Shown piece after piece: positions 781 through 11,967 of a stretch of 34,684 nucleotides of DNA; the stretch's first letter is position 1; every line of letters begins with the position of its first letter. The stretch covers positions 1-34,684 of the forward strand of contig JALEGH010000084.1 in NCBI GenBank assembly GCA_022763065.1, written 5' to 3'. The notes beneath the pieces were generated by a model, which ran no database searches, was not told where the DNA came from, and saw nothing but the letters and a program-made list of their open reading frames with translations. The stretch comes from Alphaproteobacteria bacterium. Lineage in GTDB: Bacteria > Pseudomonadota > Alphaproteobacteria > Micavibrionales > Micavibrionaceae. Both the position numbers and the translations under genes were made by a program.

Positions 781-1248
781 GTGAGCATGATTGAAGAGAG
801 ATTGAGTGAGTTGGGCCTCGAATTACCCGAATCAGCACCACCACTCTTTAACTACGTTCCTTTCGTTATTGCAGGCAATCTCGTCTTTGTCGCCGGACAG
901 GTGCCTATTGGGGGTGCCCGCGAGTATAAAGGCAAAGTCGGGGTTGAAATCGACATGGAAACCGCGCAAGAGGCCGCACGGCAATGCGCACTCAACATTC
1001 TCACGCAAATTCGCGATGCCGTAAATGGGGATTGGGACCGCGTCCAGAAATGCGTCAAGCTCGGCGGATTTGTCAATTGCGGGCCGGATTTTACCGATAT
1101 GTCTTTGGTGATTAATGGTGCTTCTGACCTCATGGTTGAAGTTTTGGGAGAGGAAAAAGGCAAACATGCAAGATTTGCTGTTGGCGCGCCTTGCCTGCCT
1201 GCCGATTTTAGCGTTGAAATTGACGCGGTGTTCGAAATTAAGCCCTAA
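781..1248 (+). CDS. RidA/YjgF-YER057c-UK114 family protein
   Basis: This 155-residue cytoplasmic protein is of the RidA superfamily, whose archetype hydrolyses reactive enamine/imine intermediates released by PLP enzymes. Family features are AGNLVFVAGQVP (residues 31-42), the basic residue R131 in KHARFAVGAPCLPADFSVEID, and the acidic E146. It is longer than canonical RidA (about 128 residues) and resembles the divergent subgroup with an extended N-terminus, often just annotated as RidA family, so substrate and even enzymatic activity are uncertain. The GTG at 781 is favoured over the ATG at 787 because a purine-rich AGAGGGAGA (765-773) is well spaced from it. Its stop overlaps the stop of the convergent receiver gene by four bases. 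Confidence 0.85.
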   Translation: MSMIEERLSELGLELPESAPPLFNYVPFVIAGNLVFVAGQVPIGGAREYKGKVGVEIDMETAQEAARQCALNILTQIRDAVNGDWDRVQKCVKLGGFVNCGPDFTDMSLVINGASDLMVEVLGEEKGKHARFAVGAPCLPADFSVEIDAVFEIKP

Positions 1249-1604
1249 CGACACATACGCTTGACGACCTGAACCAGCCTTTCGGGCTGTACCGGCTTCA
1301 TGATAATGCTCATAAATCCGTGACGTTGTGCTTGCAAAAGCAAATCACTCCCCTCATGCGCCGTCATCATCGTCATGGGAATTTTATACCCGGCCGTTGA
1401 AAGATGATCCGCCAGCATAAATCCATCCATAGCTTCCATATATTGGTCAATGAGTGCGCAGGATATATCTTGCTCTTTAATGATTTTGAGAGCCAGCTCC
1501 CCATTTTCCGCCGTCACGGTCTCATAGCCGGCCTCGTTTATAATCGCCGCCATCAAACGCCGGGTCGGTTCATTATCATCAACAATTAAAACATTTTTAG
1601 TCAT
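1245..1604 (-). CDS. Single-domain response regulator receiver (CheY-like)
   Basis: This is a stand-alone phosphoacceptor receiver domain of about 119 residues with no output domain. Counting from the ORF methionine at 1616, the acidic pair is D13/D14 (VLIVDDNEPTRR), the phosphorylation site D57 (CALIDQYMEAMDG), the switch Thr T85 (MMTAHEG) and the conserved Lys K107 (MKPVQP), so all catalytic residues are present. The ATG at 1604 (MTKNVLIVDD) is preferred over 1616 because it is next to the conserved core and has a GGA upstream. It probably relays phosphate from a histidine kinase or in chemotaxis-type signalling; no kinase is nearby. It is divergent from the pilin-like gene with only 26 bases between starts. 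Confidence 0.9.
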   Translation of the reverse strand: MTKNVLIVDDNEPTRRLMAAIINEAGYETVTAENGELALKIIKEQDISCALIDQYMEAMDGFMLADHLSTAGYKIPMTMMTAHEGSDLLLQAQRHGFMSIIMKPVQPERLVQVVKRMCR

Positions 1605-1630
1605 CGCAAATTCCATGATATTCTATAAAA

Positions 1631-2383
1631 ATGATAAAGAAAAATGAAAATCTTATTTCACGCGAGAAGGGTAGCGCCATTATCTGGATATTGATTGCCG
1701 TTGGTCTGTTCGCCGCCCTCGCCTTCGCCTTTCAAAGCTCCAACCGGACAAGCACAAGCATGCTCAGTGATGAAGAGGCCACAGCCTACGCCAACCAGAT
1801 TATTCAATATGGCAACGAAGTCAAAGCGGCAGTGAAGCGGCTCACCTTACGCGGATGCGATGAAACAGAGATTAGTTTTGAGAATAATATAGTAAGTGGC
1901 TATACAAATGCCAATGCACCTGCTTCTAAAAAATGCCATGTCTTTGATATAAAAGGAGGAGGATTAGACTACAAACAAATAAATGAAAAATGGCTTAATA
2001 GTAACCTATCAGGCTCACAATTATATAATGAATGGGTCAACAGTGGCGTTCCGGCACTCGCTTTTGTAGGAAAAGATAATTGTGGAGGTGGAAGCAGTAG
2101 CTGTTCAGATCTTTCCTTATTTCTACCTTACGTTTCCCAAACCATATGTACAAAAATAAACGACGTGTTAGAAGTAACAAATCCAGCAGGGGACCCGTAT
2201 GACGAAGGAACCGGTATATGCCTATCAAATTCTAATAAATTCAAAGGAACTTACAGCACAGGAACTTGTGGCATAGACGGGGACCCTGTCATTAATGGTA
2301 AAAAATCAGCCTGTATTAAAACGAGAATTGGGGCAGCATCTACTGAAGGATATCTGTTTTTTACCGCTTTAATTCCCCGCTAA
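1631..2383 (+). CDS. Pilin-like membrane protein of unknown function (paralogue 1)
   Basis: I do not recognise a named family. The 250-residue protein has a short basic leader (EKGS), one hydrophobic helix (about residues 15-35, GSAIIWILIAVGLFAALAFA) and a long extracytoplasmic region rich in Cys, Asn, Gly and Ser. This layout resembles class III (type IV) prepilins, but there is no Glu at +5. It is homologous to the protein at 6962-7648: shared points are YGNEVKAAV, the GGG block (109-111), FVGKDN, VSQTIC with C173, C197 and a terminal aromatic/aliphatic-Arg end. The second half (about 1870-2330) is visibly more AT-rich than its neighbours, suggesting fast evolution or different ancestry. 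No clear ribosome binding site precedes the ATG. It converges with clpA with one base between. Confidence 0.7.
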   Translation: MIKKNENLISREKGSAIIWILIAVGLFAALAFAFQSSNRTSTSMLSDEEATAYANQIIQYGNEVKAAVKRLTLRGCDETEISFENNIVSGYTNANAPASKKCHVFDIKGGGLDYKQINEKWLNSNLSGSQLYNEWVNSGVPALAFVGKDNCGGGSSSCSDLSLFLPYVSQTICTKINDVLEVTNPAGDPYDEGTGICLSNSNKFKGTYSTGTCGIDGDPVINGKKSACIKTRIGAASTEGYLFFTALIPR

Positions 2384-2384
2384 T

Positions 2385-4688
2385 CTACTCCACCACTTCC
2401 TTATCGCTATCTTCGTTTTTCTTTTCAGGTTTTTCCTGAGTGAAAGTGAATTTCAGCTCTTCATCGTCTAAATCGATTTTCACGACGCCGCCTTCGGTAA
2501 GCTCACCAAAAAGAACCTCTTCCGCCAGTGGCTTTTTAATTTGTTCCTGAATGACGCGCCCAAGCGGTCTTGCGCCCATCGCCGGATCATAACCCTCCTT
2601 GGCCAGATACTCACGCGCATCATCAGAAAGCTGGATCAACACATTTTTCTCCGTCAATTGTGCTTCCAACTGCGCCACAAATTTATCAACCACCTTCGTC
2701 ACTGTTTCTTGCGCCAGCGCCTTAAACGGTACAATGGCATCCAAACGATTTCTAAATTCCGGCGTGAACATCTTGGAAATCGCTTCGCTATCTTCATCAA
2801 CGCGCATTTCACGCTCAAATCCCATAGGTGGCTTCGCCAGTTCCGCCGCACCGGCATTCGTTGTCATGATCAAGATCACATTTCTAAAATCAATCGTCTT
2901 GCCGTTATTATCGGTGAGCTTCCCGTAATCCATCACCTGAAGGAGAATATTGTAAATATCAGGGTGTGCCTTTTCAATTTCATCAAGGAGCAAAACACAA
3001 TGCGGCGTTTGATCAATTTTATCGGTGAGCAAACCACCTTGTTCAAACCCAACATAACCGGGCGGTGAACCAATCAAACGCGATACTGCGTGACGTTCCA
3101 TATATTCAGACATATCAAAACGCGCCAGATCAATGCCCATAGTCTTGGAGAGCTGCCGCGCCACTTCTGTCTTCCCCACCCCTGTAGGACCAGAGAAGAG
3201 GTAACAGCCGATCGGCTTATCCGGATCACGAAGCCCTGCACGGGAAAGCTTAATCGCATCACACAGCACATCAATGGCTTCATCCTGATCAAACACCAGC
3301 GTTTTCAAATCCCACTCCAAATTCTTAAGCGCGCTCTTATCATCCTTGGTTAAGGTTTTCGCCGGAATGCGGGCAATCGCCGCCACCACTTCTTCAATGT
3401 CGGTGCGATCAATGACTTTCTTGCGTTTTTCTTCCGGTACCAGCATCTGCGCCGCACCAACCTCATCAATAATATCAATCGCCTTATCGGGAAGCTTTCG
3501 ATCCCCCATATATTTGGAAGATAAATTGACGGAAGCTTCAATTGCCTCATCGGTATATTCGACACCGTGATGATCTTGATAATAGGTGCGCAAACCTTTG
3601 AGGATTTGGATGGCTTCCTCTAATGTTGGTTCGACCACATCAATTTTTTGGAAGCGCCGCACAAGTGCGCGGTCTTTTTCAAAATGGTTGCGGTATTCCT
3701 TATAGGTCGTTGATCCAATGCAGCGCAATGAACCATCCGACAGGCTGGGCTTTAAGAGGTTGGAGGCATCCATCGCTCCACCACTTGTAGCACCCGCACC
3801 AATCACATTATGAATTTCATCAATAAACAAAACAGAGTCCGGCACATTTTCAAGCTCTTTCAAAACAGCTTTCAAGCGCTCCTCAAAATCGCCGCGATAA
3901 CGGGTTCCGGCCAACAAAGCCCCCATATCAAGTGAGAAAATCACCGTATCTTTTAAAACTTCCGGTACGTCACCATCATTAATCCGCTTGGCCAGCCCTT
4001 CGGCAATTGCGGTCTTGCCCACACCGGGGTCACCAACATAAAGCGGATTATTTTTAGAACGCCTGCAAAGAATTTGGATCGTACGGTTTACTTCCTTTTC
4101 CCGTCCAATCAGTTTATCAATCTTGCCTTCCTGCGCCTTGTAATTGAGGTTCTCGCAATAAGTGCTGAGGGCTTCTGAGCCCGTCTTCACGCCGCTTGTC
4201 TCTTGTTCCTGAGGGTCCGCGCCGCTTGGCGGTTTCGGATTGCTTTCGACACCCGGCACCTTGGCAATACCGTGAGAAATATAATTCACCGCATCAAAGC
4301 GGGTCATATCTTGTTCCTGCAAAAAATAAACCGCGTGACTTTCACGCTCTGAAAACAGCGCCACCAAGACATTGGCCCCCGTCACCTCTTCACGTCCCGA
4401 AGATTGCACATGAATGGCAGCGCGTTGTAACACACGTTGAAACGCCGTTGTCGGCTTGGCCTCATCCGGCTCATCAGATTTGAGATAGCCTAACTCACTC
4501 TCCACATATTGGCTCAATTGCTCACGAATATCTTCCAGCGCAATACCGCAAGATCTCAGCACCGCCATCGCATCCTGATCATAGGTCAGTGCCAATAATA
4601 AATGCTCCAGCGTCGCATATTCATGTTTACGCTTTGTCGCCTCGGCCAGTGCCTTATGCAGTGTCTGTTCTAAATTGCGTGAGAGCAT
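2385..4688 (-). CDS. clpA: ATP-dependent Clp protease ATP-binding subunit ClpA
   Basis: ClpA is the AAA+ unfoldase that feeds substrates, including N-end-rule and SsrA-tagged proteins, to the ClpP peptidase in the cytoplasm. The 767-residue protein has the usual length and order: N-terminal Clp_N double repeat (about 1-145), AAA module 1 with Walker A GDPGVGKT (219-226) and Walker B VLFIDE (286-291), AAA module 2 with Walker A GPTGVGKT (500-507) and Walker B VLLLDE (565-570), and the ClpB-type D2-small domain ending the protein. There is no ClpB-type middle coiled coil. An MGF tripeptide (622-624) sits where the IGL/IGF ClpP-docking loop is expected. It starts 28 bases after clpS, so the adaptor and unfoldase are very likely one operon. 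clpP is not in the window. Confidence 0.97.
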
Positions 4689-4716
4689 TTAAGATCCTTG
4701 TATTTAGGTTTAAGCT

Positions 4717-5115
4717 TTACTCTTTTTCCATCGTGCATTGAAGCGGTTGTTCGTTGGCACGGGCAAAATCCATGACTTGGGCGACCTTGGTTTCAGCGAC
4801 CTCATAGGTAAAAATCCCGCAAATCCCAACACCGCGCCTGTGAACATGCAGCATGATATCGGTTGCCTCCTGCCTAGTTTTACTGAAAAACCTTTCTAAA
4901 ATATGAATAACGAACTCCATCGGCGTATAATCATCATTCAGGAGCAAAACCTTATACATAGCCGGTTTTTTGGTTTTAGGACGGGGCTTGAGAAGAAGGC
5001 CCGTTTGCGGATCATTTTCCTGATTCTCTTGCCCGACGCCGCCCTGACCACCATCGTAACCGGGACCGGGAAGGTCTTGATCTTCATTGGCTCGAACAGG
5101 GGATAAAGACATCAT
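4717..5115 (-). CDS. clpS: ATP-dependent Clp protease adaptor ClpS
   Basis: ClpS binds N-degron substrates and delivers them to ClpA. The conserved core spans about residues 50-128: [16 protein letters not shown] with the pocket residues N60, D61 and D62, then [12 protein letters not shown] with the pocket His (H92), and the closing [15 protein letters not shown]. The roughly 50-residue N-terminal tail is Gly/Gln/Asp-rich and longer than the tail of E. coli ClpS, though long tails occur in Alphaproteobacteria. Two adjacent ATG codons (5115 and 5112) begin the frame and cannot be separated by sequence; no strong Shine-Dalgarno is visible. It heads a clpS-clpA operon on the minus strand, and transcription must start in the AT-rich spacer shared with the divergent carboxypeptidase gene. 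Confidence 0.96.
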
Positions 5116-5313
5116 GAATACGCTTAAGCACTTGTTTTTAAAGGATTAAATGCAAAAAACAGTAAGGAGCCCGATTTTCACATTCAAAACAATTATTTTG
5201 AAAGAACATTCTAACTCAAAACCCTTAAAAAGCAATAAAAAGAGGATTATAGCTCTCCTCGCGCTAGACAGAATTTTATTTTACCCGTAATATTGAGGGC
5301 GTGGGTTCGTTTT

Positions 5314-5335
5314 GGAGAAATAGATCTATTTCTCC
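5314..5335. promoter_or_regulatory. Perfect 22-bp palindrome between clpS and the carboxypeptidase gene
   Basis: The sequence reads GGAGAAATAG, AT, CTATTTCTCC with no loop, and is exactly its own reverse complement. It lies about 70 bases upstream of the carboxypeptidase start and about 200 bases from clpS. The lack of a loop and the absence of a T-run on either strand argue against an intrinsic terminator; a dimeric repressor or activator operator is more likely. The surrounding 5116-5403 spacer is AT-rich and holds no gene that I can see. Confidence 0.5.
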
Positions 5336-5369
5336 CGCTTTCATAAAGGGAATGTAAACTGATTTAATA

Positions 5370-5375
5370 TATAAT
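5370..5375 (+). promoter_or_regulatory. Candidate -10 box (TATAAT) for the carboxypeptidase gene
   Basis: A perfect TATAAT lies 28 bases before the ATG at 5404. No good -35 hexamer is found 16-18 bases upstream (the region reads AAGGGA/AGGGAA), so if this is used it may depend on an activator. The 22-bp palindrome at 5314-5335 ends just upstream of where the -35 element would be, which fits such control. AT-rich sequence makes chance occurrence possible. Confidence 0.3.
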
Positions 5376-5403
5376 TAAGATTCAGTTTGATAAAGTTTTG
5401 GTA

Positions 5404-6957
5404 ATGATACAAGGCATCGAAAACAGCAGATTATTCAATATAATCATGGCGTTGATTATTTTCACCGCCCTTTGTTTTGCCCCGTTCAGTACTGCACAAG
5501 CCAAAAAATCAAAAGGTAACCCCAAATACGCCTCCATCGTCATGGATGCTGATAGCGGTATGATCCTGTCGCAACGCTATGCCGATAAGGTACTCCACCC
5601 CGCCTCTCTCACCAAGATGATGACATTGCTTTTAGCATTCGAAGCATTAGACAGGGGTGCCATCCAACTCAATGACCGGGTACGGATTTCCAGCCGGGCC
5701 GCCAGCATGGTGCCCAGTAAAATCGGCCTGCCTGCAGGTTCCAGCATCAAAGTCAAAGACGCTATTTTGGCGCTTGTCACCAAATCGGCCAATGATATTG
5801 CCGTGGCTTTGGCCGAACATCTGGGCGGTTCGGAATATAAATTTGCCAATATGATGACCGCACGGGCCAGAACAATTGGCATGAGCAAAACCAGATTTAA
5901 GAATGCCTCCGGCCTTCATAACAAATATCAGGTCAGCACCGCGCGCGATATGGCCAAAATGGCACGCTATATACTTCAACGTTACCCGCATTACTACAAA
6001 TATTTCTCGACCAAAAGCTTTACTTATCGCGGCAAAACCTACCGCAACCATAACCGTCTGATGAGTAGCTATAAGGGAATGGACGGTTTTAAAACAGGAT
6101 ACATCAATGCCTCGGGCTTTAACCTTGTGGCCTCCGCCCGGCGTGATGGAAGACGCCTTATTGGGGTTGTTTTTGGCGGGCGCACGACCAAAACCAGAAA
6201 CGCCCACATGGCCAGCATTTTGGATGCAGGTTTCAAGAAGGTCAAAAATGTGCGCATCGCTAGCGTTATTACACCGCCCAAACCAGAAGCCAAACCAGTC
6301 TATGGTCTGGCCAGTATGGAACGTAAACCGGCCTTAACAGACTCTAAAGCCTTTACCTCATTGGCGGCGCTCAACACACCCACCAAGATTAAGACAGCAA
6401 AAAAAGTCTCTCCTGATTACACGGCCTTGACCAAAGCATTACAAGAAGGAGCCTTTGGAGAATTAATCGGAGAAGGAGATTTTGACCCCGCTGTTTCAAA
6501 GCGCTTTGAAACAGGGCTCATTGCCATTGCCGTGCATAAAGGTGAATACCGCCCCAACCCCGCACCAGCGACAGAAGTTCAAAAATCTTTGGAAAAAGTG
6601 AAACATGCCATGGTGTCTAAAATTGGAACAAACGCCGTTACACCTACAACAAAAAAGACATCAACACCCGCAGCATTGCCTCACCCTAAAGATGTCGTTG
6701 GGAAGTGGTCCGTCCAGATCGGTGCCTACACCAGCCGCACCAAAACCGATGAGGCCCTGCGTCAGGCCGCCCGTAAGCTTCCTAAAAACCACACAATTTC
6801 ACCGGTAAGCGTGCCCTTAAGGACAGCACAGGGTATGGTTTTCCGTGCACGCTTTGTCGGTTTCAGCGAAAAAGAAGCAAAGAAAGCCTGTTACGCTCTT
6901 CGCTCGTATGACTGTATGATCGTAGCACCTTTGGCCACAAAAATAAGCCAGCGATAA
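5404..6957 (+). CDS. D-alanyl-D-alanine carboxypeptidase (PBP5/6 family) with C-terminal SPOR domain
   Basis: This periplasmic penicillin-binding protein removes the terminal D-Ala from peptidoglycan pentapeptides. From the ATG at 5404 there is a signal peptide (cleavage near AQA, residues 31-33), then the peptidase S11 domain with SLTK (68-71, catalytic Ser and Lys), SAN (128-130) and KTG (230-232). A low-complexity Pro/Thr/Lys linker follows, and the last about 80 residues (from WSVQIGAYTSRTKTDEAL, residue about 437) form a SPOR domain that binds denuded septal glycan, targeting the enzyme to division sites. The family Leu-rich C-terminal amphipathic anchor of PBP5 is replaced by SPOR, an arrangement known in Alphaproteobacteria. 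The frame extends to a TTG at 5398, but ATG is chosen. The pilin-like gene follows after four bases. Confidence 0.94.
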   Translation: MIQGIENSRLFNIIMALIIFTALCFAPFSTAQAKKSKGNPKYASIVMDADSGMILSQRYADKVLHPASLTKMMTLLLAFEALDRGAIQLNDRVRISSRAASMVPSKIGLPAGSSIKVKDAILALVTKSANDIAVALAEHLGGSEYKFANMMTARARTIGMSKTRFKNASGLHNKYQVSTARDMAKMARYILQRYPHYYKYFSTKSFTYRGKTYRNHNRLMSSYKGMDGFKTGYINASGFNLVASARRDGRRLIGVVFGGRTTKTRNAHMASILDAGFKKVKNVRIASVITPPKPEAKPVYGLASMERKPALTDSKAFTSLAALNTPTKIKTAKKVSPDYTALTKALQEGAFGELIGEGDFDPAVSKRFETGLIAIAVHKGEYRPNPAPATEVQKSLEKVKHAMVSKIGTNAVTPTTKKTSTPAALPHPKDVVGKWSVQIGAYTSRTKTDEALRQAARKLPKNHTISPVSVPLRTAQGMVFRARFVGFSEKEAKKACYALRSYDCMIVAPLATKISQR

Positions 6958-8581: not shown

Positions 8582-10069
8582 TTACGTGCCACTGTTGCTT
8601 TTTTGAATAATATTCGTTGTGCTATAGCCATCGTAAAGGGGCATAATTTCAACCTCTCCGCCATAGGACAAAACAACCTGCCCTTCGGGAAGCTGGTCAA
8701 TCGTGTAATCCCCCCCCTTCATAAGAATATCGGGTTGAAGATAACCCACAATGTCACACGGGGTATTATCTTCGCCCTCTTTTTGTGCACCAAAAAAAAC
8801 CACCAAATCAATCGAGCTAAGTGCAGCCATCACGGTCGCCCGGGCCATTTGATCATTCACAGGCCGCGTAGGGCCTTTCAAAATCCGAACCGATTGATCA
8901 TGATTAAGCGCCAGAACAAGACGATCACATTTAGCCCGCGCCTGCGCTAGATAATTCACATGACCGTAATGCACAATATCAAAACAGCCATTTGTAAAAC
9001 CAACCTTCAAGCCTCTCGCTTGCCAATTGTGGATTTGCTCTTTCGCCAAATCCCAATCTTCCATGACAGGCGCAATCATATCCGGATTAACATGATCGTT
9101 ATGAGTAGCCTGAAGTAACTCATCTGTGCTCACGCTTGCCGTTCCGGATTTTCCCACAACAAGACCGCCTGCAATATTAGCAAGCTGCGCTGCTTGCTCC
9201 AGGGAAGCGCCCGCCGCCAAACAAGCCGCCATCACCGCCATGACACTATCTCCCGCACCGGAAACATCATAGACTTCACGCGCCGTTATTTTGAAATGGA
9301 CAGGTTTCGCTTTTTTAGGAACAAGACTCAAACCATCTTCTGAACGAGTCACCAGAACATTTTCAATTTTGCTGACTTTCATCAAACTTTTAGCGGCTTT
9401 TTCAATCTCCTCATCTGTTTGAACAGGCAAGCCCTCTGTAATTTCTTCAAGCTCTTTACGATTGGGCGTCATCAACATAACACCCTGATAACAACTCAAA
9501 TCCTTACGTTTGGAATCGATCAAAACAGGCACTCTATGAGTTTTTGCCAATTTCATAAGCTCCTTAATCAACTGGTCGGCCAAAACACCTTTACAGTAGT
9601 CAGATAGAATCAGAGCATCCATCTTCTCAATACTCTCACGCACCTGCACCAAAATTTTATCTTCTATCTGAGATGAAATAGGAACCGTTTCTTCCCGGTC
9701 CACTCTCAAAAGCTGCTGCCCAGCTGATACATATCTGGTTTTTTGAATAGTTGGACGTTGCTCATCAATCAAACAACCTTGCGATTCGCTTCCCAGCGAT
9801 TCGACCATCTCCTTGACCTGCTGCCCTGCTACATCCTGCCCAATAACGGAGAAAATCCGTGTTTTCACCCCAAGAGCAGCCAAATTGGCCAAAACATTAC
9901 CCGCGCCTCCCAGCATTGGGCGCTCCCCGGTATATTTAAGCACCGGAACCGGCCCTTCCGGAGAAATACGCGAAACGTCTCCATACACAAAAGAATCCAA
10001 CATAATGTCCCCAACAACCATCACTGAAACATTTTGGAAGCTGTTTAGTAACCCATTGTAATTATTCAT
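8582..10069 (-). CDS. hldE: Bifunctional heptose-7-phosphate kinase / heptose-1-phosphate adenylyltransferase HldE
   Basis: HldE carries out two cytoplasmic steps in ADP-heptose synthesis for the LPS inner core: kinase action on D-glycero-D-manno-heptose 7-phosphate and adenylyl transfer onto the 1-phosphate. The N-terminal PfkB kinase domain (about 1-320) has GGAGNVLANLAALG (54-67) and the catalytic GAGD (271-274, Asp274). The C-terminal cytidylyltransferase-like domain starts near 350 with TNGCFDIVHYGH (359-370). The frame is open to 10132, but the ATG at 10069 is next to the conserved start, has AAAGAGAC upstream and gives 495 residues, near the usual length of about 480. It is divergent from the MshEN-BTLCP gene. 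The single-gene fusion is common in Proteobacteria. Confidence 0.96.
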   Translation of the reverse strand: MNNYNGLLNSFQNVSVMVVGDIMLDSFVYGDVSRISPEGPVPVLKYTGERPMLGGAGNVLANLAALGVKTRIFSVIGQDVAGQQVKEMVESLGSESQGCLIDEQRPTIQKTRYVSAGQQLLRVDREETVPISSQIEDKILVQVRESIEKMDALILSDYCKGVLADQLIKELMKLAKTHRVPVLIDSKRKDLSCYQGVMLMTPNRKELEEITEGLPVQTDEEIEKAAKSLMKVSKIENVLVTRSEDGLSLVPKKAKPVHFKITAREVYDVSGAGDSVMAVMAACLAAGASLEQAAQLANIAGGLVVGKSGTASVSTDELLQATHNDHVNPDMIAPVMEDWDLAKEQIHNWQARGLKVGFTNGCFDIVHYGHVNYLAQARAKCDRLVLALNHDQSVRILKGPTRPVNDQMARATVMAALSSIDLVVFFGAQKEGEDNTPCDIVGYLQPDILMKGGDYTIDQLPEGQVVLSYGGEVEIMPLYDGYSTTNIIQKSNSGT

Positions 10070-10245
10070 ATTTTTGTCTCTTTTTGGCCAAAAAATTAAA
10101 ATAACGCTCCCAATCATAACCGGTTTTAACAATTTCTTAACTAAAAACTTTTTCTTTTATGTCATTTGTTAGTATTTCAGTAACACTTTTGCGTAATAAT
10201 GGAACTCTAGGGATTTTAATAAAGTAAATCGGTACGGGGATTACT

Positions 10246-11208
10246 GTGTCATACGCGTTAGAAGAAAAAGAAGTGCAACATCAGGGGATTCTCTCCAGAT
10301 TAAAAGCACGTCTCAGAAAAAACCGACTCGGTGAACTTCTTGTTCAAGACGGTGCCCTAACTTCCGATCAACTTGATTATGCCTTGGCCCGCAGCAAAAA
10401 AAGCGGACAACAGCTTGGTCATGTTTTGGTGGCCGAAGACCTCGTTTCCCGCGGTACAATCCAGCGCACATTATTGGAACAATTCACACTACGTTGTGTG
10501 ATGACTGGTGTTGCCGTCTTTATTTCTTTGGCATCTATGGGATTTGCCAAACAGGCCAGAGCCGGACAAATTCAAGATGCCACAACGCGCATTTCTTTGG
10601 CTTATGATTCATTCGAGCAAGTGAGCTATCACCCGAAACTTTTCGGTTCGACTGAAAAACGTTCAGGCTCATTAAAAGCCTTCACAAAATGGACTGGTAT
10701 GTTTGAGCGCTTCAATGCATCGCTTAATTCGGGTCGTGATCAAGGCGCAATTGGAAAGTTCAAACAAGATTTGGCGGCGCTTAAAGGATTACCGCTTGAG
10801 AAAATGGTGTCGCGTGTGAATAGCATGATGAATGCCAAGCGCTATGTTTCCGATAAAGCAAATTATGGGCAAACCGACTACTGGGCCACACCGGTCGAAT
10901 TTTTCAAGCGCGGCGGCGATTGCGAAGATTTCGCCATTGCAAAATACACCGCCCTTAAAGCCTTGGGCGTTCCAGAAAGCCGCTTGAGAATCGCTATCGT
11001 GCAAGACATGCAAAAGAATATTCCGCACGCCATTCTTATTGTCTACACAGATAAAGGACCGATGGTTCTTGATAATCAGATTAAATCGGCCATACCTGCC
11101 AGCCGGGTTTCACATTACAAGCCGATCTTTTCAATCAATCAGCAGGCCTGGTGGCTCCACACCGCACCAAAGGGCAATCTGACGGTTGTAGCCTCTGCCG
11201 CGCAGTAA
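10246..11208 (+). CDS. Membrane-anchored BTLCP-family cysteine proteinase with N-terminal MshEN-like domain
   Basis: The 320-residue protein has three parts. Residues 27-79 form two 24-residue motifs separated by exactly five residues: RLGELLVQDG...LDYAL (27-50) and QLGHVLVAED...TLLEQ (56-79). This matches the tandem MshEN/GspE-N pattern that binds cyclic di-GMP in MshE, although Arg1 and Gly10 of motif II and Gln24 of motif I are replaced. A single hydrophobic segment (84-100) follows. Residues from 107 on form a bacterial transglutaminase-like cysteine proteinase (DUF920, LapG-like) with the triad C226 (GGDCEDFA), H261 (PHAILIV) and D276 (VLDN). The likely topology is sensor inside, protease in the periplasm. 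The GTG start is supported by ACGGGGA five bases upstream. A second BTLCP gene follows. Confidence 0.86.
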   Translation: MSYALEEKEVQHQGILSRLKARLRKNRLGELLVQDGALTSDQLDYALARSKKSGQQLGHVLVAEDLVSRGTIQRTLLEQFTLRCVMTGVAVFISLASMGFAKQARAGQIQDATTRISLAYDSFEQVSYHPKLFGSTEKRSGSLKAFTKWTGMFERFNASLNSGRDQGAIGKFKQDLAALKGLPLEKMVSRVNSMMNAKRYVSDKANYGQTDYWATPVEFFKRGGDCEDFAIAKYTALKALGVPESRLRIAIVQDMQKNIPHAILIVYTDKGPMVLDNQIKSAIPASRVSHYKPIFSINQQAWWLHTAPKGNLTVVASAAQ

Positions 11209-11298: not shown

Positions 11299-11967
11299 AT
11301 GCGTTTTGTATATGTGATACTGTGTTTAGGGTTGTTTCTCCCTGCCTTGCAAATGGCACCTCCCGCGCATGCGGATATTTTGGGTCATCCTTCGGTATCC
11401 AGCGGTGATTCGTTTGATCACCTGCCCCAATGGCAAGAAACCCTGCAACAATACCAAATTGAGCGCTACACACATCAAACACGTAAAAGCCAGAACTGGG
11501 CCGCCTTTATTGATTCCCTAAGAGATGATTCTCCCATCCGTCAGCTTTTAAAAGTGAATCTATGGTTCAATGGCTTCCCCTATAAACAGGATAACTGGGT
11601 TTATAGCGCGAACGATCATTGGGCCAGCCCGGCCGAATTTCTCGAAAATGGAGGCGATTGCGAAGATTTTTCAATTATTAAGTATCTCACTCTACGCCGC
11701 CTTGGCTTTCCGGCAAACAGCATGAAAATCGCCATTGTCTATGATATCTATAGTGGAACCGACCACGCCTTTCTTGTGGTTGAACATGGGGACGAGGAGT
11801 ATGTGCTCGATAATCGTGAGAATATGACCGTTGCCTCACATTACACGGAGCGCTACAAGCCTTACTACGCCTTTAATGAAGAGCAGATTTGGGCCTACGA
11901 AAAACCGGTTATTGCCAAGACAATCCGCAAAGATATGGAAGAAACCGTCCTGCCGGGAAACAGGTAA
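11299..11967 (+). CDS. Secreted BTLCP-family transglutaminase-like cysteine proteinase
   Basis: This 222-residue protein has a Sec signal peptide (hydrophobic 3-20, cleavage near AHA, residues 23-25) and a bacterial transglutaminase-like cysteine proteinase domain. The catalytic triad is C121 (GGDCEDFS), H156 (DHAFLVV) and D171 (VLDN). The acidic residues around the Cys (DCED) match those that bind calcium in LapG. Family members such as LapG cut large adhesins from the cell surface in the periplasm. It is about 30% similar by eye to the upstream gene in the core (both have W-A-[ST]-P-x-EF before GGDCEDF) but lacks the sensor domain and anchor. It converges with pyk, with two bases between stops. 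No adhesin substrate is visible in this window. Confidence 0.88.
   Translation: MRFVYVILCLGLFLPALQMAPPAHADILGHPSVSSGDSFDHLPQWQETLQQYQIERYTHQTRKSQNWAAFIDSLRDDSPIRQLLKVNLWFNGFPYKQDNWVYSANDHWASPAEFLENGGDCEDFSIIKYLTLRRLGFPANSMKIAIVYDIYSGTDHAFLVVEHGDEEYVLDNRENMTVASHYTERYKPYYAFNEEQIWAYEKPVIAKTIRKDMEETVLPGNR

What the first reader, a model, noticed from the sequence alone, without database searches (positions are those of the whole stretch)
10246..11208. A single-pass protease with a cytoplasmic c-di-GMP-type (MshEN) domain fused to a LapG-like periplasmic domain
Seen: residues 27-79 form two 24-residue motifs with RLGELL/QLGHVL heads, spaced by five residues as in the MshE c-di-GMP receptor; then one hydrophobic span (84-100); then a BTLCP domain with an intact C226-H261-D276 triad. 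Known: in the Lap system a LapG (BTLCP) protease is held inactive by a separate c-di-GMP receptor, LapD. Inference: this protein could combine receptor and protease in one chain and be gated across the membrane by c-di-GMP. Weak points: motif I lacks its final Gln, and motif II lacks its first Arg and its Gly, so binding may be lost or one-sided.
Basis: partly seen in the sequence, partly recalled or inferred. Interest (0 to 1): 0.82.

Follow-up and report, generated by a model that had tools for sequence, protein, structure and literature searches.

The report
c-di-GMP-type domain fused to adhesin-cutting protease
Relatives of the predatory bacterium Micavibrio carry a gene in which a domain resembling a known sensor of the signal molecule c-di-GMP is joined to a protease of the kind that cuts sticky surface proteins loose, which suggests a one-gene way of letting go that now needs laboratory tests.

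Summary
Window:10246-11208 encodes 320 aa: residues 27-79 match NCBIfam's MshE-type c-di-GMP motif (51.5 bits, cut-off 38); residues 186-291 are Peptidase_C93/BTLCP with an intact C226-H261-D276 triad. Both parts lie in one frame in 51 of 58 related genomes (Micavibrionaceae and sister families). Ligand-contact positions are much better conserved than the rest of the motif. LapD's domain was found in 0 of 58 relatives, against 57 of 200 in a phylum sample.

A probable substrate is giant type-I-secreted adhesins with a positioned [T/P]AAG LapG-type site, seen in 30 of 30 examined.

The 'single-pass, one-chain gate' needs revision. The hydrophobic span aligns with the signal peptides of MshEN-less relatives and is followed by a conserved A-x-A (A106 52 of 52, A104 46 of 52). 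The protease may therefore be cut free of the sensor. c-di-GMP binding by this member is doubtful (Ser50, Gln56).

Best reading: a cis-encoded, LapD-independent c-di-GMP input to a LapG-like adhesin protease. Nothing was tested at the bench.

The parts
10246..11208 (+). CDS of the 320-aa MshEN-BTLCP fusion protein
   Evidence: one frame in 51 of 58 related genomes
10324..10395 (+). MshEN motif I, residues 27-50 (near canonical; last residue Ser50 instead of Gln)
   Evidence: NF053729 27-79; Gln50 in 37 of 52 rows, Ser in 12
10411..10482 (+). MshEN motif II, residues 56-79 (Gln56 for Arg, Asp65 for Gly; Gly58 and Gln79 kept)
   Evidence: NF053729 27-79; Gly58 and Gln79 in 52 of 52 rows
10495..10545 (+). 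hydrophobic core, residues 84-100: signal-peptide core or single membrane span
   Evidence: aligned with signal peptides of MshEN-less BTLCPs
10555..10563 (+). A104-x-A106, putative signal peptidase I site (cleavage would follow residue 106)
   Evidence: A106 in 52 of 52, residue 104 A 46, S 3, V 2, T 1. An A-x-A-like triplet somewhere in this Ala-rich stretch is common by chance (shuffle mean 40 of 52), so the fixed columns are the evidence; cleavage itself not tested
10801..11118 (+). Peptidase_C93 / BTLCP domain, residues 186-291, triad codons 10921-10923 (C226), 11026-11028 (H261), 11071-11073 (D276)
   Evidence: PF06035 78.8 bits, cut-off 27; triad invariant in 52 rows
11299..11967 (+). 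second, MshEN-less BTLCP (222 aa) with its own signal-peptide-like start
   Evidence: PF06035 57.3 bits; alignment; second C93 match in 7 of the 10 own-genus genomes. Relation to the fusion's function unknown
8582..10132 (-). hldE-like heptose kinase/adenylyltransferase gene, divergent neighbour (context only)
   Evidence: TIGR02198 over cut-off; an ORF of this cluster in 66 of 81 loci

Best explanation
The gene encodes an exported, LapG-like cysteine protease whose precursor carries its own cytoplasmic c-di-GMP-type sensor (the MshEN N-subdomain) in front of the export signal. Its likely job is to cut giant type-I-secreted adhesins at a [T/P]AAG site behind their N-terminal region and so free them from the outer membrane. 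c-di-GMP on the MshEN part is proposed to set, in cis and without a LapD-type receptor, how much active protease reaches the adhesin. Shown by sequence: the fusion, the intact triad, the conservation of ligand-contact positions, no LapD domain found, LssB-type transporters and adhesins with the site. Inferred: c-di-GMP binding, the protease-adhesin pairing, the direction (by analogy high c-di-GMP means less cutting), and whether control acts on a tethered protease or on export and signal-peptidase maturation (I lean to the latter).
For: MshEN and C93 matches over cut-off; 51 of 58 relatives with both in one frame, 51 of 51 matching both models; twelve contact positions 3.73 bits against 2.00 for the rest of residues 27-79, 0 of 20,000 random sets as high, Gly58 and Gln79 invariant; LapD domain 0 of 58 against 57 of 200 in the phylum sample; GGDEF in 58 of 58; LssB transporters over cut-off in 55 of 58; adhesin N-terminus matched in 46 of 58 including the own genome; [TP]AAG in 30 of 30 examined, and 20 of 21 anchored ones at 29-34 residues before the anchor, shuffle mean 1.8 and maximum 7 of 21; consensus [T/A/P]AAG for LapG and DvhG (PMC13090378, passages).
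Against: Motif II lacks its Arg in 48 of 52 rows, and this member also lacks Gln50. The conserved A-x-A argues against a lasting tether. The gene is not linked to the adhesin or secretion genes in the own genome (C53 against C30 and C59). Co-occurrence is imperfect: 12 of 58 genomes gave no adhesin match, 9 of them with the fusion, and G024 and G025 (84% complete) have the adhesin but no fusion was found. The protein is far below the LapG equivalog cut-off (109.7 against 320 bits). A second BTLCP is present in the own genome, and other receptors such as PilZ exist (own genome one).
Confidence: 0.5

Rival explanations
1. One reading: an uncleaved single-pass membrane protein in which c-di-GMP binding to the cytoplasmic domain is transmitted through the helix and switches the tethered periplasmic protease.
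For: One chain in 51 of 58 relatives. DvhG of D. vulgaris is a BTLCP with a membrane anchor (PMC13090378, passages).
Against: Short, weak hydrophobic core; conserved A-x-A; alignment with signal peptides of MshEN-less BTLCPs. Pairwise identity of the span is only 0.24 on average, low for a signal-transmitting helix.
Confidence: 0.2
2. The MshEN part is a degenerate or docking domain that no longer binds c-di-GMP and only places the precursor at a membrane partner; the protease is controlled otherwise.
For: Arg missing from motif II in 48 of 52 rows, Gln50 missing in this member. XpsE lost binding through such changes (PMC5013675, passages); PilF GSPII-A does not bind (PMC12002112, passages). 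PilF's N-terminal half binds PilM (same paper).
Against: Gly58 and Gln79 invariant, Gly29, Leu43, Leu47 and Leu76 almost so, and contact positions far better conserved than others. Hydrophobic positions could be kept for the fold alone; an invariant Gln79 is harder to explain so.
Confidence: 0.2
3. The protease acts on envelope or polysaccharide targets other than the adhesins, as HvyA does on the Caulobacter capsule.
For: HvyA, an alphaproteobacterial BTLCP, restricts capsulation and needs its triad (PMC4241560, passages). The fusion sits beside an hldE-like gene (an ORF of that cluster in 66 of 81 loci), not beside secretion genes. Nine genomes have the fusion without an adhesin match.
Against: The positioned [T/P]AAG of the adhesins. 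G036 (98% complete) lacks the fusion, an LssB match over cut-off and the adhesin N-terminus together, a single case.
Confidence: 0.2

Closest known systems
LapD/LapG/LapA system of Pseudomonas fluorescens
   Same: BTLCP with C-H-D triad, T1SS adhesin with a [T/A/P]AAG site, c-di-GMP as proposed input
   Different: There the receptor LapD is a separate membrane protein (HAMP-GGDEF-EAL with a LapD/MoxY periplasmic domain); here an MshEN-type motif is encoded on the protease itself and no LapD domain was found in 58 relatives
DvhD/DvhG of Desulfovibrio vulgaris (PMC13090378, passages)
   Same: BTLCP acting on large T1SS adhesins under c-di-GMP control without LapD; DvhG has an N-terminal membrane segment
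   Different: The receptor DvhD is a separate HD-GYP protein with a dCache domain; DvhG has no c-di-GMP domain described in the passages seen
HvyA of Caulobacter crescentus (PMC4241560, passages)
   Same: Alphaproteobacterial BTLCP with a signal sequence and an essential triad
   Different: No MshEN domain; restricts capsulation; controlled through its abundance in the cell cycle
NfrB of Escherichia coli (PMC8669469, passages)
   Same: MshEN domain regulating an enzyme on the same chain at the inner membrane
   Different: Glycosyltransferase output, cytoplasmic C-terminal MshEN, no periplasmic protease

Membership tests
Peptidase_C93 / BTLCP | Family HMM over cut-off and Cys-His-Asp triad | tested here: met
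   PF06035 78.8 bits, cut-off 27; C226, H261, D276 in 52 of 52 rows
Peptidase_C93 / BTLCP | Calcium-binding acidic residues next to the catalytic Cys (positions recalled from LapG) | tested here: met
   Asp225 52 of 52, Glu227 49 of 52; the assignment of these residues to Ca2+ is recalled, calcium itself not tested
LapG equivalog (NF045674) | Score over curated cut-off 320 bits | tested here: not met
   109.7 bits: LapG-like, not LapG
LapD/LapG system | LapD receptor in the genome | tested here: not met
   PF16448 0 of 58 relatives; 57 of 200 over cut-off in the phylum control, several beside a C93 gene
LapD/LapG system | Adhesin with N-terminal [T/A/P]AAG site and T1SS with LssB-type transporter | tested here: met
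   [TP]AAG in 30 of 30 examined; LssB over cut-off in 55 of 58. Retention_LapA model itself: 41 of 58 match, 0 over cut-off
LapD/LapG system | Cleavage of the adhesin by the protease | not testable with these tools
   bench test needed
MshEN c-di-GMP-binding domain | Two 24-residue motifs with a 5-residue spacer, family HMM over cut-off | tested here: met
   NF053729 51.5 bits, cut-off 38, model positions 1-53
MshEN c-di-GMP-binding domain | Consensus residues needed for binding (first Arg and last Gln of each motif, Gly at third place) | tested here: inconclusive
   Arg27, Gly29, Gly58, Gln79 present; Gln50 and motif II Arg absent in this member; PMC12002112 passages
MshEN c-di-GMP-binding domain | Pfam MshEN model PF05157 | tested here: not met
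   no match at E<=1; C-terminal subdomain apparently absent
MshEN c-di-GMP-binding domain | Fold and c-di-GMP binding | not testable with these tools
   structure prediction failed and was then switched off; binding is a bench test
Signal peptidase I substrate | Positive charge, short hydrophobic core, small residues at -3 and -1 (rule recalled) | tested here: met
   R/K83 52 of 52; weak core; A/S/V/T104 and A106 in 52 of 52; columns shared with MshEN-less BTLCPs
Signal peptidase I substrate | Cleavage after residue 106 | not testable with these tools
   N-terminal sequencing needed; SignalP not on hand

The most novel reading that the evidence does not exclude
A ligand-gated signal peptide: a c-di-GMP receptor domain placed as the cytoplasmic n-region of a cleavable signal sequence, so that c-di-GMP controls export or signal-peptidase maturation of a periplasmic adhesin protease, and thereby when Micavibrio-type epibiotic predators and their relatives let go of surfaces or prey.
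Probability: 0.22. Interest if true: 0.9.

Novelty: new variant of a known kind. Interest (0 to 1): 0.72.

Why it matters
The c-di-GMP-controlled BTLCP adhesin proteases that I saw described use separate receptors: LapD, or DvhD (PMC13090378, passages). Here a receptor-like domain is built into the protease gene and conserved across a bacterial group in which no LapD domain was found; if it senses c-di-GMP, this is a further solution to the same problem. If the signal-peptide reading is right, it would be a new principle: a second messenger acting on the export signal of a protein. It also offers a handle on attachment in Micavibrio-type predators. In M. aeruginosavorus ARL-13 the largest 'hemolysin-related' T1SS protein, GMV0107 (2892 aa, upstream of TolC, HlyB and HlyD), has an expression index of 16.9 in the attachment phase against 0.3 in the attack phase (PMC3189940, passages). 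From length and gene order it is probably the counterpart of the adhesin found here (2871-aa frame of G031 near an LssB gene), but that was not checked by sequence.

Tried and rejected
No fold search was made; domain claims rest on sequence.

A viral-contig scan found 3 pattern matches but no relative. The second T1SS adhesin family (FecR-like/FG-GAP; 27 frames aligned, three of them second copies of the same gene from overlapping loci) was examined as a substrate and rejected: no conserved di-alanine site. The retention_LapA model matched 41 of 58 genomes, none over cut-off, so no claim is built on it. An internal start that would separate sensor and protease was considered and rejected: the frame is open through both parts in 51 genomes, and Met86 is present in 10 of 52 rows. 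A diguanylate cyclase gene beside the fusion was seen in G049 and G037, with one gene between in G042; I did not survey this in every genome. That the fusion is the only c-di-GMP receptor of the genome is rejected: one PilZ match over cut-off in the own genome, 35 of 58 overall.

Fusion elsewhere: in a class sample of 385 genomes near full-length matches came from 4, all of the own family; in a phylum sample of 398 only from the own genome. Match lists were cut after the best rows, so divergent independent fusions are not excluded.

Print: MshEN with LapG, 4 papers, listing only, none opened; 'MshEN domain' with c-di-GMP, 52 papers, 30 listed, of which 3 were read in passages (PMC5013675, PMC8669469, PMC12002112); Micavibrio with c-di-GMP, 12 papers, listing; LapG, LapD and BTLCP, 9 papers, of which 3 were read in passages; MshEN with transglutaminase, 1 unrelated paper; 'cysteine protease', 'MshEN domain' and 'periplasmic', 0 papers. 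In what I saw the fusion is not mentioned. Supplements (including the domain tables of PMC5013675) were not seen, and most subscription papers are not in the library.

Full report
OBSERVATION. The frame 10246-11208 (+) encodes 320 aa. Residues 27-79 match the MshE-related c-di-GMP motif NF053729 end to end (51.5 bits, curated cut-off 38). Residues 186-291 match Peptidase_C93/BTLCP (78.8 bits, cut-off 27), and LapG-type chains are the best solved relatives. The own genome (1.88 Mb in 97 contigs, 99.6% complete) has one match to the motif and two to C93, all in this window. Pfam's MshEN model does not match the protein. In an ATPase of L055 the stretch resembling the window's motif is at 53-107 and PF05157 matches at 114-198, so the window protein seems to have the ligand-binding N-subdomain alone.

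WHOSE GENE. The window's assembly carries no name. The 80 best named relatives are MAGs titled Micavibrio or, mostly, Alphaproteobacteria without a genus (L061-L140). L064, titled DT-Micavibrionaceae-1, lies on a contig of 129,385 bases, the length of contig C50 of the same-genus genome G001.

CONSERVATION. Of 58 genomes (own, genus, family, order), 57 match the protein. In 51 the motif and the protease lie in one frame, and these 51 all match both NF053729 and NF045674. The other seven: G010 has a frameshift inside the motif; in G057 the match is divided between two contigs; G024, G025 and G039 (62-84% complete) and G036 (98% complete) show no fusion; G041 (73% complete) has an MshEN-less ortholog. 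In a class sample near full-length matches came from 4 of 385 genomes, all of the own family; in a phylum sample from the own genome only, of 398. Most other listed matches begin at about model position 120 or later, a few at 81-118.

IS THE SENSOR PART UNDER SELECTION? Contact positions were taken from PMC5013675 (passages). In 52 aligned rows (51 plus the frameshifted one) the twelve contact positions average 3.73 bits against 2.00 for the other positions of 27-79, and 0 of 20,000 random sets were as high. Rows are related, so this is not a count of independent events. Gly58 and Gln79 occur in 52 of 52; Leu43 and Leu76 in 51; Gly29 and Leu47 in each of the 51 rows with a residue there. Residue 27 is R in 41 and K in 10. 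The last residue of motif I is Gln in 37, Ser in 12 (the own genus and two further genomes), His in 2, Ala in 1. The first residue of motif II is Pro 20, Gln 15, Asn 5, Arg 4, others 8. Against binding: in PilF GSPII-A, constructs regained measurable binding only when the last residue of both motifs and the first of motif II were consensus, with the third residue of motif II needed for high affinity (PMC12002112, passages). This protein departs at two of those three. I put c-di-GMP binding at about 0.7 for the group and 0.5 for this member (judgement).

MEMBRANE SPAN OR SIGNAL PEPTIDE? After Arg/Lys83 (52 of 52) comes a weak hydrophobic core: the 19-residue Kyte-Doolittle maximum averages 1.55 and is below 1.6 in 27 of 52. 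Residue 104 is A 46, S 3, V 2, T 1, and residue 106 is Ala in 52 of 52, in a stretch with mean pairwise identity of 0.28. These fit the -3/-1 preferences of signal peptidase I (recalled). The hydrophobic cores and A-x-A-like ends of MshEN-less BTLCPs fall on about the same columns in an alignment, most clearly in L052, L138-L140 and the window's second BTLCP; L058 and L064 fit less well. An A-x-A-like triplet somewhere in this Ala-rich stretch is common by chance (shuffle mean 40 of 52, maximum 49), so the fixed columns and the alignment are the evidence. The simplest history is that MshEN was added in front of a secreted BTLCP that kept its signal peptide. Release of the mature protease is then at least as likely as a lasting tether.

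SUBSTRATE. LssB-family T1SS transporters are over cut-off in 55 of 58 genomes; 14 of 14 control genomes match below cut-off and 0 over it. In the own genome one LssB gene lies between a TolC-type and an HlyD-type gene, behind the C-terminal part of an adhesin with T1SS-143 repeats and a type-I target domain (L145). The N-terminal 304 residues of the corresponding G005 adhesin (2689-aa frame) match 46 of 58 genomes, the own one on contig C30. The 30 loci kept, one per genome, were examined: 30 of 30 carry [TP]AAG in the N-terminal part. For 21 a downstream anchor was found by pattern; 9 were dropped before the position test. All 21 have [TPA]AAG in the 75 residues before the anchor (shuffles: mean 1.8, maximum 7 of 21), in 20 the last site is 29-34 residues before it, and 1 further site lies in 9,821 residues behind. 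The published LapG consensus is [T/A/P]AAG, cut between the alanines (PMC13090378, passages; LapA is cut before Ala109, PMC3032545, passages). Against: 12 of 58 genomes gave no adhesin match, and 9 of these have the fusion; G024 and G025 have the adhesin, but no fusion was found in these 84%-complete genomes. G036 lacks the fusion, the adhesin match, the retention match and an LssB over cut-off together, one case. The protease-adhesin pairing is inferred.

RECEPTOR. LapD's periplasmic domain (PF16448) was found in 0 of 58 relatives. The built-in controls were silent there, so a phylum sample was run: 57 of 200 genomes over cut-off, several with the LapD match about 150-250 bases from a C93 match. 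GGDEF proteins occur in 58 of 58, seven in the own genome; of four own GGDEF frames looked at, three carry GG[DE]EF. A receptor of another type, such as DvhD, is not excluded.

MECHANISM. Best reading: at low c-di-GMP active protease reaches the adhesin and releases it; at high c-di-GMP it is restrained through the MshEN part of the same chain or precursor. The direction is by analogy with LapD/LapG and DvhD/DvhG. Whether restraint acts on a tethered enzyme or on export and maturation is open; I lean to the latter. Confidence is 0.5 for the whole and about 0.65 for the protease-adhesin pairing (judgements).

CONTEXT. An ORF of the hldE cluster occurs in 66 of 81 loci, usually divergent from the fusion: a stable position without an evident functional tie. 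The adhesin and T1SS genes are on other contigs of the own genome.

VERDICT. Observation confirmed; interpretation partly supported; a new variant of a known kind (c-di-GMP-controlled BTLCP adhesin proteolysis) with a possibly new way of control.

Noticed in passing
window:11299-11967 (+): A second, MshEN-less BTLCP with its own signal-peptide-like start lies directly behind the fusion; a second C93 match occurs in 7 of the 10 own-genus genomes. Whether it shares the substrate is unknown.
   Followed up: partly
L060 (G044:C9:1-7800), 862-6928 (-): Six transglutaminase-like/BTLCP frames in tandem on one strand; PF06035 over cut-off in two, below it in three, Transglut_core only in one.
   Followed up: partly
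L148, L150 and L151-L177: A second T1SS adhesin family with a FecR-like N-terminal domain and FG-GAP repeats, in several genomes near an LssB gene, without a conserved di-alanine site.
   Followed up: partly
L178-L207, adhesin N-termini: In many of these adhesins the EPAAG unit with its preceding Ala/Leu-rich stretch is doubled, giving two candidate cut sites 14-35 residues apart.
   Followed up: no
window:7659-8483 (-): 274-aa frame without a Pfam or NCBIfam match, next to the hldE-like gene; frames of its cluster occur in 43 of 81 loci.
   Followed up: no
L053, L055, L057: A frame with an MshEN-type stretch starts about 1.7 kb from the fusion, divergently; in L055 it is a T2SSE-type ATPase with MshEN, a possible source of the fused domain.
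   Followed up: partly
L122:4434-5465 (-); G037:C5:35126-35605; G042:C38:16741-17220: A GGDEF gene lies convergent beside the fusion in G049 and G037 and one gene away in G042.
   Followed up: partly
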